This document shows, one piece after another, positions 22,098-23,722 of a stretch of 64,000 nt of DNA. Source of the DNA: Pedobacter puniceum (GTDB lineage: Bacteria > Bacteroidota > Bacteroidia > Sphingobacteriales > Sphingobacteriaceae). How positions within the stretch are numbered: the first letter of the stretch is position 1; every line of letters starts with the position of its first letter. The translations under genes and the position numbers were made by a program. The stretch spans positions 496,001 through 560,000 of the forward strand of contig NZ_WKJI01000002.1 of NCBI RefSeq assembly GCF_009674685.1, read 5' to 3'. The notes below the pieces were generated by a model. The model saw nothing but the letters and a program-made list of their open reading frames with translations. It did no database searches and was not told the origin of the DNA.

Positions 22098-22421
22098 TTA
22101 ATCCTTATTGTGCTTACGTTTAGGATTGTTTATCTTAACCGGGTCTTGGCGAGTATCAAATATATCGGTAATCAAAACACCTTCTGCAACTCTTTTATAA
22201 ATCACCTTGTAATTTCCGCTTACAATATACCTGTATCCTTCATTTAGTTGCTTAAGAAAGATTTCCTCCTGACCAGAATCAGGATAATGCTTTAGTTGTT
22301 TGGTAGACTTAAATATCTCTGTTTTTATTTTATATGCGATACTTTTTCCTGCTACTTTAGCGTAGTATTTAGTGATGGCTTTAAGGTTTTCAATTGCAAA
22401 ATTAGTCCAGATTATTTTCAT
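22098..22421 (-). CDS. ParE/RelE-type toxin of a type II toxin-antitoxin pair
   Basis: From the ATG at 22421 the protein is 107 residues (MKIIWTNFAIENLKAITKYY); a longer frame to 22445 overlaps the antitoxin and is less likely. The sequence matches the ParE/RelE plasmid-stabilisation fold: FAIENLKAITKYYAKVAGKSI, then LKHYPDSGQEE, then EGYRYIVSGNYKVIYKRVAEGVLITDIFDTR. Members are either mRNA endonucleases or gyrase poisons; the sequence does not settle which. The antitoxin lies 4 bp upstream on the same strand. The C-terminus carries a basic tail (PKRKHNKD). Confidence 0.85.
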   Translation of the reverse strand: MKIIWTNFAIENLKAITKYYAKVAGKSIAYKIKTEIFKSTKQLKHYPDSGQEEIFLKQLNEGYRYIVSGNYKVIYKRVAEGVLITDIFDTRQDPVKINNPKRKHNKD

Positions 22422-22425
22422 CGAA

Positions 22426-22656
22426 TTACCAGTTCTCAGATTCAATCTCTAGTTGTTCTTGCGTTTTAAAGTTTCCTGTAAGATAATCATCATTAGAATG
22501 TTTAATTCTACTTAATAATTCTTCTTGAGTAAACGGTTTTAATTTTTCATTACCAATCTTATCCTTAATAATTGTTTCAATCTTGTTGAACAACTTCTCA
22601 TCCTTAAGCTCTATCAGGTATTGGATAATATTTAGTTTTCGTGTTTGTAGATCCAT
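22426..22656 (-). CDS. Antitoxin of the ParE/RelE-type pair
   Basis: This is a 76-residue acidic protein, MDLQTRKLNIIQYLIELKDEKLFNKIETII..., ending in KTQEQLEIESENW. The layout, an N-terminal helical dimerisation part followed by an extended C-terminal tail, and the EELLSRIKHSNDDYLTGNF segment resemble the small antitoxins often paired with ParE/RelE toxins in Bacteroidota. It stops 4 bp before the toxin start. Antitoxins of this type usually repress their own promoter. A TATTTTTG -7-like element lies at 22683-22690 on the same strand, about 27 bp upstream, without a clear -33 partner. Confidence 0.75.
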   Translation of the reverse strand: MDLQTRKLNIIQYLIELKDEKLFNKIETIIKDKIGNEKLKPFTQEELLSRIKHSNDDYLTGNFKTQEQLEIESENW

Positions 22657-22970
22657 TTGCTGAATTTTTATATATAAAATTACAAAAATAATTTTAGCAA
22701 AATGAACATATTCCTTACTAACTCATCAAAGTTTTGTTTCACTTTAGTTGTATAAACATAAGCCGTATAAAGTAGTAGACACGGTGAACTACCTTTGTTT
22801 TATGTATATGAGTTGTCTTTATAGTGCTGAAAAACCTTGTCTAATGGTTTTAAAAACGAAGATAAGAGGTACTATTTTAAGGTAACCAAACCCCTATAAA
22901 ACAGTTAAGCTCAGAACGGGGAGAACTGAGCTTAAACTAACCAATTATAAACCTAAATTAAACGAAAGGG
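22657..22970. other. Gene-free stretch between the TA operon and the tRNA-like gene
   Basis: These 314 bases hold no convincing reading frame. They contain a possible -7 element for the antitoxin (22683-22690, minus strand) and the terminator hairpin at 22900-22938. The rest is AT-rich with no repeat or motif I can support. Confidence 0.5.
22900..22938 (-). terminator. Terminator hairpin downstream of the tRNA-like gene
   Basis: The perfect 10-bp inverted repeat TTAAGCTCAG (22905-22914) / CTGAGCTTAA (22926-22935) has an 11-nt loop. On the minus strand it is followed by CTGTTTTATAGG. It begins about 33 bp past the 3' end of the tRNA-like gene and fits a terminator for that transcript. Confidence 0.65.
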
Positions 22971-23083
22971 CTGTAGGGGTAGGAGTCGAACCTACACGAA
23001 GTAGTTATTTCACATTGCTGCTATTTCCCAAACCTTCGCCACCGAGACAAGGAGGTGTGTCTGCCAATTTCACCACCCTACAG
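22971..23083 (-). tRNA. Atypical class II tRNA-like gene with a 43-nt variable arm
   Basis: Read on the minus strand it has a 7-bp acceptor TGTAGGG/CCCTACA (8 bp if C23083-G22971 pair). The D arm GTG-AAATTGGCAGA-CAC is as in tRNA-Leu, and the canonical T arm is GTAGG-TTCGACT-CCTAC. The would-be anticodon stem CCTCC/GGTGG (23051-23055, 23039-23043) has a central T-T mismatch around loop TTGTCTC, which would place GTC at 34-36 and a pyrimidine at 37, both odd. The variable region (22996-23038) is 43 nt, closed by CGAAG/CTTCG, much longer than in normal Leu or Ser tRNAs. The base after the acceptor is G, not the A of tRNA-Leu, and CCA is not encoded. Amino-acid identity cannot be assigned. It may be a divergent tRNA, a decayed one, or a tRNA-like regulatory RNA. 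Confidence 0.6.
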
Positions 23084-23140
23084 TATATTTATTTGTCAAT
23101 TTTTGAAGAAGATCGCCTTCTTTCTGTTGATTGAACAATA

Positions 23141-23172
23141 CAAATGTAATAGCAAAACTTATATTTTACAAA
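23141..23172 (-). promoter_or_regulatory. Consensus Bacteroidota promoter for the tRNA-like gene
   Basis: On the minus strand TTTG (23172-23169) is followed after exactly 20 nt by TACATTTG (23148-23141), a perfect match to the Bacteroidota sigma-A consensus TTTG-N19-21-TAnnTTTG. The tRNA-like sequence begins about 58 bp beyond the -7 box, after a leader that includes a small hairpin (AAGAAG/CTTCTT, about 23108-23124). This supports real transcription of the RNA. Confidence 0.75.
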
Positions 23173-23245: not shown

Positions 23246-23722
23246 ATGATTGATAAATCCCGCCAAAATTTAGAAATTGATAATCTGGATATTGAAATTT
23301 TGTCTATCCTGATGAATGATGCAACTACTGCATATACTGAAATAGCCAAAGAATTAATCGTTTCTGGTGGTACTATCCACGTGAGAATGAAGAAGATGCA
23401 GGATATGGGTATCATCAAAGGCTCTAACTTAATAGTAGATGCACAGAAAGTTGGTTATGATATTTGTGCCTTCTTAGGTATTTACTTAGAGAAAGGTTCT
23501 ATCTACCACGATGCCGTTGAAAAACTAAAACAAGTTAAGGAAATTGTAGAGTTGCACTACTGTACAGGAGCTTATTCTATGTTTGCCAAAATTATTTGTA
23601 GAGATACTACGCATCTTCGCCATGTTTTAAATGATCAAGTACAAGCTGTACCAGGTATTCAACGTACGGAGACTTTTATCTCTTTAGAGGAAAGCATTAA
23701 AAGACAGATTACATTAAAGTAA
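23246..23722 (+). CDS. Lrp/AsnC-family transcriptional regulator
   Basis: This 158-residue protein has the Lrp/AsnC layout. An N-terminal HTH (residues 12-60) contains DIEILSILMNDATTAYTEIAKELIVSGGTIHVRMKKM. A C-terminal RAM/ligand-binding domain has VGYDICAFLGIYLEKG, the GAYSMFAKIICRD effector loop and QRTETFISLEE. It forms oligomers that sense amino acids and bind DNA. The HTH entry differs slightly from E. coli Lrp (AKELIVSGGTIHVR), as is usual in Bacteroidota homologues. It is divergent from the tRNA-like gene with 160 bp between them, so it could share control with it. A weak hairpin follows the stop. Confidence 0.9.
   Translation: MIDKSRQNLEIDNLDIEILSILMNDATTAYTEIAKELIVSGGTIHVRMKKMQDMGIIKGSNLIVDAQKVGYDICAFLGIYLEKGSIYHDAVEKLKQVKEIVELHYCTGAYSMFAKIICRDTTHLRHVLNDQVQAVPGIQRTETFISLEESIKRQITLK

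What the first reader, a model, noticed from the sequence alone, without database searches (positions are those of the whole stretch)
22900..23172. Expressed tRNA-like RNA with a very long variable arm and odd anticodon arm
The acceptor, D and T arms are canonical, but the variable region is 43 nt with a closing CGAAG/CTTCG stem, the anticodon stem carries a T-T mismatch, the loop TTGTCTC has no purine at 37, and the discriminator is G on a Leu-like body. A perfect Bacteroidota promoter (TTTG-N20-TACATTTG) and a 10-bp terminator flank it, so it is a stand-alone transcription unit rather than random similarity. It could be a novel tRNA family, a tRNA-derived regulator, or a decaying tRNA. An Lrp/AsnC regulator, which senses amino acids, is divergent to it.
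Basis: partly seen in the sequence, partly recalled or inferred. Interest (0 to 1): 0.75.

Follow-up and report, generated by a model that had tools for sequence, protein, structure and literature searches.

The report
Non-decoding tRNA-like RNA for asparagine
The window carries a real, widely conserved but undescribed tRNA-like RNA that appears built not to read codons but to be loaded with aspartate and converted to asparagine, next to the gene for an asparagine-sensing type of regulator; if true, these bacteria make an amino acid on a dedicated RNA scaffold.

Summary
A 112-nt tRNA-like RNA lies on the minus strand at 22971-23082, with its own promoter and terminator. It is not a decaying tRNA: homologues of about 107-196 nt occur in more than 20 Bacteroidota families, with strong covariation in all stems. 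No Rfam family covers it beyond a weak match to generic tRNA.

In 108 distinct sequences the Leu-type body carries the known aspartate identity set (G73, U35, C36, C38 in 108/108; G34 in 103/108) plus U1-A72 (108/108), the pair the amidotransferase GatCAB reads. Decoding features are lost (U33 in only 86/108, never A37).

GatB is present in 53/53 RNA-bearing genomes tested. Among genomes holding both GlnRS and AsnRS, where GatCAB has no standard task, GatB occurs in 34/34 with the RNA and 4/11 without. The divergent 'Lrp' gene is closest to E. coli AsnC, which activates the divergent asparagine synthetase gene asnA; it flanks the RNA in 51 of 69 loci from 20 families.

Best reading: AspRS charges the RNA, GatCAB amidates Asp to Asn, and AsnC controls it as an asparagine-supply gene. 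Charging, amidation and the fate of the Asn are inferred. Absence of asparagine synthetases was not tested.

The parts
22971..23082 (-). Mature tRNA-like RNA (112 nt, G73 at 22971; C74 encoded at 22970), 7-bp acceptor and 5-bp T stem, class II with a 42-nt variable arm
   Evidence: homologues; covariation
23039..23055 (-). Anticodon arm CCUCC-UUGUCUC-GGUGG: G34 U35 C36 and C38 = aspartate determinants; U37 instead of A37; U-U mismatch 29/41 conserved in the Sphingobacteriaceae members
   Evidence: determinants from PMC9976931
22997..23038 (-). Variable arm: outer stem CGAAG/CUUCG, inner internal loop, GNRA-capped hairpin; covarying outer stem; dispensable in one relative
   Evidence: V-arm-less relative in L243
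23141..23172 (-). Bacteroidota-type promoter TTTG-N20-TACATTTG of the RNA; similar boxes precede most homologues inspected
   Evidence: sequence inspection
22905..22935 (-). Intrinsic terminator hairpin (10-bp perfect arms 22905-22914 / 22926-22935) followed by a U-rich tract
   Evidence: terminators after homologues
22939..22953 (-). Conserved box GGTTTATAATTGGTT between RNA 3' end and terminator in Sphingobacteriaceae; function unknown
23246..23722 (+). AsnC-type regulator gene (158 aa), divergent from the RNA; closest solved relative E. coli AsnC 2CG4
   Evidence: conserved neighbour of the RNA

Best explanation
The RNA is a dedicated, non-decoding tRNA-like scaffold for tRNA-dependent asparagine synthesis. 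Steps: (1) the RNA is transcribed from its own promoter, which faces an AsnC-type regulator; (2) it is trimmed and CCA-tailed like a tRNA; (3) aspartyl-tRNA synthetase charges it with Asp, reading G34 U35 C36 C38 and G73; (4) the amidotransferase GatCAB, reading U1-A72, converts Asp to Asn on the RNA; (5) loss of U33 and A37, and usually a bulky variable arm, keep this Asn carrier with an Asp anticodon off the ribosome; (6) Asn is released for general use, and AsnC adjusts RNA supply to the Asn level, as E. coli AsnC does for the divergent asnA gene. Shown: conserved structure, presence of the determinants, AsnC linkage, co-occurrence with GatB. Inferred: transcription and processing, charging, amidation, exclusion from translation, release of Asn, regulation.
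For: Identity: in 108 distinct homologues G73, U35, C36 and C38 are 108/108, G34 is 103/108, G2 and C71 are 108/108, and U1 and A72 are 108/108. Bacterial Asp determinants are G73, G34, U35, C36 and C38, and amidation needs U1-A72 and is blocked by G1-C72 and U20a (PMC9976931; PMC4206432). By region the window RNA is closest to host tRNA-Leu in the D arm (0.85) and to tRNA-Asp in the anticodon arm (0.71) and acceptor (0.53). In the host the Asn and Gln tRNAs are the elongator tRNAs seen with U1-A72. Not for decoding: U33 in 86/108, pyrimidine 37 in 105/108, never A37; the host has its own tRNA-Asp(GUC) and five Leu tRNA genes. GatCAB: GatB in 53/53 RNA+ genomes; among GlnRS+ AsnRS+ genomes 34/34 RNA+ versus 4/11 RNA- have GatB (Fisher p 7e-6); joint absence within families f1, f2, f5 and in f3/f4. 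AsnC: nearest PDB chain is E. coli AsnC, E 6e-37, against 2e-11 for E. coli Lrp; gene divergent from the RNA in 51/69 loci from 20 families, in no other orientation. E. coli AsnC activates the divergent asnA gene and Asn reduces this (PMC8707732). A relative without the variable arm keeps U1-A72, U35, C36, C38 and G73.
Against: No biochemistry. G10, another bacterial Asp element, is present in only 27/108, and G1-C72, conserved in tRNA-Asp, is replaced. A few members have A34 or C34, and one has U38. A long variable arm may hinder AspRS. U1-A72 also occurs in an ordinary tRNA-Asn of a Flavobacteriaceae-like genome (L141) whose family members tested lack GatB, so on its own it is not diagnostic. 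Four RNA- genomes with both GlnRS and AsnRS still have GatB (G304, G347, G360, G417). The co-occurrence is not corrected for phylogeny. AsnA/AsnB status and AspRS type were not tested. In the f5, f63, f67 and f81 loci examined the AsnC gene is not next to the RNA.
Confidence: 0.62

Rival explanations
1. The RNA is charged with Asp and amidated by GatCAB, but the Asn is not released into metabolism. It is either an aminoacyl donor for a non-ribosomal product (lipid, peptide or cell-wall modification) or a charging-state sensor that controls Asn metabolism.
For: Same identity and GatB evidence. The long variable arm has conserved internal motifs (GAUAAA/GCUAA, GGGUUGACCAC) that look like protein or ligand contacts.
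Against: No conserved transferase or biosynthetic neighbour in about 85 loci; only AsnC recurs across families. The variable arm can be lost altogether.
Confidence: 0.17
2. GatCAB works on ordinary tRNA-Asn through a non-discriminating AspRS, and the RNA is an AsnC- or translation-related regulatory RNA whose link to GatCAB is indirect.
For: tRNA-Asn of the host has U1-A72 and G73. Bdellovibrio and Legionella appear to use this route with both AsnRS and GlnRS present (PMC4206432).
Against: It does not explain why all five Asp determinants and U1-A72 are fixed on a Leu-type body while the decoding positions are free, nor why GatB and the RNA are absent together in several families.
Confidence: 0.12
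3. An unusual decoding tRNA: Asp with anticodon GUC, or a Ser or Leu tRNA charged through its class II body.
For: Normal U8, D-loop GG, T loop and encoded C74 as in host tRNAs. G73 and a large variable arm are Ser elements.
Against: U33 and purine 37 are not kept. G73 is a listed antideterminant against LeuRS. SerRS needs C72 and C11-G24, but A72 is 108/108 and U11 92/108. SerRS has no anticodon determinant, yet the anticodon positions are invariant. A full normal tRNA set exists.
Confidence: 0.05
4. Decaying tRNA-Leu or chance similarity.
For: Missed by ARAGORN and only weakly matched by the tRNA model.
Against: Conservation and covariation across several orders, recurring promoters and terminators, up to six tandem copies.
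Confidence: 0.01

Closest known systems
tRNA-dependent asparagine synthesis (non-discriminating AspRS + GatCAB on tRNA-Asn), e.g. Deinococcus, Thermus, Staphylococcus aureus, Bdellovibrio
   Same: Asp loaded by AspRS and amidated by GatCAB through U1-A72; GatCAB retained despite GlnRS and AsnRS (PMC4206432)
   Different: The proposed carrier is not tRNA-Asn but a separate class II RNA with an Asp anticodon that seems unable to decode; AspRS need not be non-discriminating
E. coli asnC-asnA locus
   Same: AsnC-type regulator divergent from the gene that supplies asparagine
   Different: The divergent gene is an RNA, not asparagine synthetase
tRNA-Leu (bacterial class II)
   Same: D-arm sequence, GG in D loop, class II variable arm, T arm
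   Different: G73, U1-A72, Asp anticodon loop, variable arm of 38-122 nt
Non-translating tRNA-Gly of Staphylococcus peptidoglycan synthesis (from memory)
   Same: tRNA-like RNA adapted to leave translation
   Different: Different amino acid, body and pathway
allo-tRNAs and tRNA-Sec (8/4, 9/3, 8/5 forms)
   Same: Class II tRNAs with unusual anticodon-body combinations
   Different: Here the acceptor and T stems are the normal 7/5

Membership tests
tRNA (Rfam RF00005) | Cloverleaf with score above gathering threshold | tested here: met
   35.2 bits versus 29 for the window copy; seven loci with other members give no match at E 0.1
Decoding elongator tRNA | U33 and purine at 37 for codon reading | tested here: not met
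   U33 86/108, purine 37 only 3/108 across the family; the window copy has U33 but U37
tRNA-Leu | A73 discriminator, Leu anticodon | tested here: not met
   G73 108/108; anticodon GUC
tRNA-Ser | G73 with C72 and C11-G24 | tested here: not met
   A72 108/108; U11 92/108; determinants
AspRS substrate | G73, G34, U35, C36, C38 | tested here: met
   108, 103, 108, 108, 108 of 108
AspRS substrate | Actual aspartylation | not testable with these tools
   needs enzyme assay
GatCAB substrate | U1-A72 and no U20a antideterminant | tested here: met
   U1-A72 108/108; the D-loop base taken as 20a is A in 108/108 (numbering by analogy with tRNA-Leu)
GatCAB substrate | GatCAB present in the genome | tested here: met
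   GatB in 53/53 RNA+ genomes; GatA and GatC not searched
tRNA-dependent Asn synthesis as sole Asn route | No AsnA/AsnB | not tested
AsnC regulator (neighbour gene) | Closest to E. coli AsnC rather than Lrp | tested here: met
   E 6e-37 versus 2e-11; also 3e-34 versus 6e-13 for a distant family
allo-tRNA / tRNA-Sec | 8/4, 9/3 or 8/5 acceptor/T stems | tested here: not met
   7/5 in the alignment
phage or plasmid tRNA | Carried by mobile elements | tested here: not met
   no match in phages, plasmids or viral contigs

The most novel reading that the evidence does not exclude
A previously undescribed RNA family is the working surface of asparagine biosynthesis in much of Bacteroidota: a chimeric tRNA with a Leu body and Asp and GatCAB identity elements that has given up decoding, so that one amino acid is made on a dedicated RNA controlled by AsnC.
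Probability: 0.5. Interest if true: 0.95.

Novelty: new variant of a known kind. Interest (0 to 1): 0.86.

Why it matters
It would explain why many Bacteroidota keep GatCAB although they have both GlnRS and AsnRS. It would show that tRNA-dependent amino acid synthesis can move onto an RNA freed from translation. It would also give a natural tRNA scaffold that tolerates large variable-arm insertions. Even without the mechanism, it is a conserved RNA family in many genera, missed by ARAGORN in the window and absent from Rfam as a family of its own.

Tried and rejected
1) Anti-Shine-Dalgarno mimicry (ACCUCCUU in the anticodon arm equals the 16S tail, from memory): rejected, because the stem sequence changes with compensation in other families. 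2) Mobile-element origin: no phage, plasmid or viral hits. 3) Homology of the long variable arm to a known RNA: no Rfam match in seven loci. 4) Conserved enzyme neighbours of the RNA or of gatB: none informative besides AsnC. 5) A hidden divergent RNA beside the AsnC homologue in Flavobacteriaceae-like and other RNA-less genomes: not found. 6) Asparagine synthetase genes near the AsnC homologue in RNA-less genomes: none recognised by eye in the translated neighbours. 7) Single-strand folding of the window copy alone: uninformative. 8) Literature on such an RNA: none found in the held open-access library.

Full report
What is there. The finding lies in a Sphingobacteriaceae-type genome (G000, 3.9 Mb; named records carrying an identical RNA include Pedobacter glucosidilyticus). 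On the minus strand, 23082 to 22971, is a 112-nt tRNA-like RNA with a 7-bp acceptor stem, Leu-type D arm, 5-bp anticodon stem with one U-U mismatch, a 42-nt variable arm, 5-bp T stem, T loop UUCGACU and G73. C74 is encoded, as in nearly all listed host tRNA genes. A Bacteroidota-type promoter (TTTG-N20-TACATTTG, 23172-23141) and a 10-bp terminator hairpin (22905-22935) flank it. ARAGORN and the default Rfam scan miss it; a permissive scan gives the tRNA model at 35.2 bits.

It is a family, not a relic. An exact 39-mer is found in 52 stretches, almost all Sphingobacteriaceae, often as a tandem pair of a short (about 111 nt) and a long (about 141 nt) form. Covariance model R1 found longer relatives in other Bacteroidota families. 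Model R2, built on 59 members, separates the family (102-130 bits in one order, mostly 78-127 bits in another) from ordinary tRNA-Leu (at most about 65 bits). About 46 of 89 genomes of the order of G007, 53 of 69 of the order of G076, and two genera of another class carry it, some with up to six tandem copies. On 58 distinct sequences, 95.5% of paired cells are standard pairs against 84.3% after shuffling and at most about 60% with slid partners. Sixteen pairs show changes on both sides, covering acceptor, D, anticodon, variable and T stems (the alignment was fitted to the structure, which inflates this somewhat). Promoter-like boxes and terminator hairpins flank most of the homologues inspected.

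What is conserved. In 108 distinct sequences U1, G2, C71, A72, G73, U35, C36 and C38 are invariant, G34 is 103/108 and U3 107/108. By contrast U33 is only 86/108 (G, A or C otherwise), and position 37 is a pyrimidine in 105/108 and never A. The variable arm ranges from 38 to 122 nt, with an outer stem, an internal loop with GAUAAA/GCUAA and, in long forms, a conserved GGGUUGACCAC segment. One relative (L243) has lost the variable arm but keeps U1-A72, U35, C36, C38 and G73, so these ends, not the arm, are the constant core.

Reading the pattern. The aspartate identity set of bacteria is G73, G34, U35, C36 and C38 (with G10 and G2-C71 as further elements). Amidation of Asp-tRNA by GatCAB needs U1-A72 and is prevented by G1-C72 and U20a (PMC9976931; PMC4206432). 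The RNA has the five Asp determinants and the amidation pair on a body whose D arm is closest to tRNA-Leu. G73 is an antideterminant for LeuRS, and the SerRS elements C72 (always) and C11-G24 (in most members) are missing. Loss of U33 and A37 argues against decoding, which would be harmful for an RNA carrying Asn with an Asp anticodon (inference).

Independent test: GatCAB. GatB was found in 16/16 RNA+ genomes and in none of three RNA- genomes, then in 37/37 RNA+ and 26/43 RNA- genomes. Of the 26 RNA- genomes with GatB, 21 lack GlnRS and one lacks AsnRS, so GatCAB has a standard task there. Restricted to genomes with both GlnRS and AsnRS, GatB is present in 34/34 RNA+ and 4/11 RNA- genomes (Fisher p 7e-6). 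The RNA- GatB- cases include members of RNA-bearing families (G002 and G122 in f1; G017 and G115 in f2; G359 in f5), which suggests several joint losses. The test is not corrected for phylogeny, and some exceptions are fragmented assemblies.

Independent clue: AsnC. The divergent gene at 23246-23722 is closest to E. coli AsnC among solved structures (E 6e-37, against 2e-11 for E. coli Lrp), and the same holds in a distant family. An AsnC-type gene lies divergent and about 40-320 bp upstream of the RNA in 51 of 69 loci from 20 families, never in another orientation. In E. coli AsnC is autogenous and activates the divergent asparagine synthetase gene asnA, an effect reduced by asparagine (PMC8707732). 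The RNA thus sits where an asparagine-making gene would be expected. Caveat: AsnC homologues also exist in lineages without the RNA, and one of these also scores closest to AsnC.

Conclusion. The best-supported mechanism is a dedicated RNA for tRNA-dependent asparagine synthesis: AspRS loads Asp, GatCAB makes Asn, decoding is disabled, AsnC adjusts supply. I put the AspRS-plus-GatCAB substrate claim at about 0.7 and release of Asn for general use at about 0.55. Alternatives are a non-ribosomal Asn donor or sensor, or an indirect link to GatCAB. Not tested: asparagine synthetases, GatA and GatC, AspRS specificity, expression. No description of such an RNA was found in the held open-access library, which lacks most subscription journals.

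Noticed in passing
window 22939-22953 (-): Box GGTTTATAATTGGTT between RNA and terminator is conserved in many Sphingobacteriaceae, and remains with a hairpin near the AsnC gene in G002 (L132), with a close variant in G122 (L131), although no RNA is found there. Two further exact copies are in the host genome (L160, L162).
   Followed up: partly
window 22098-22445 (-) and about 22430-22720 (-): Small gene pair resembling a RelE/ParE-type toxin and its antitoxin just downstream of the RNA terminator (by eye, not searched).
   Followed up: no
L202 1302-2407 (G396 C1:3545329-3546434): Six tandem copies of the RNA within 1.1 kb in one genome.
   Followed up: no
L243 1839-1915 (-) (G072): 77-nt relative that lost the variable arm but keeps the acceptor end, U35 C36 C38 and G73, with A34; no AsnC gene nearby.
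   Followed up: yes
G425 C6:121133-121981 and G347 C51:4632-5480: GatB-type domains inside open frames of about 1110-1130 residues, perhaps GatB fusions or paralogues; G347's is its only GatB hit.
   Followed up: no
L141, upstream of the AsnC homologue of G029: A tRNA-Asn (GUU) gene lies next to the AsnC-type gene in one Flavobacteriaceae-like genome (read by eye).
   Followed up: no
L065, L243, L247, L248, L249 (families f9 and f82): Members with A34 or C34 instead of G34; G166 (f9) and G385 (f82) lack GlnRS, so RNA charging may differ there.
   Followed up: partly
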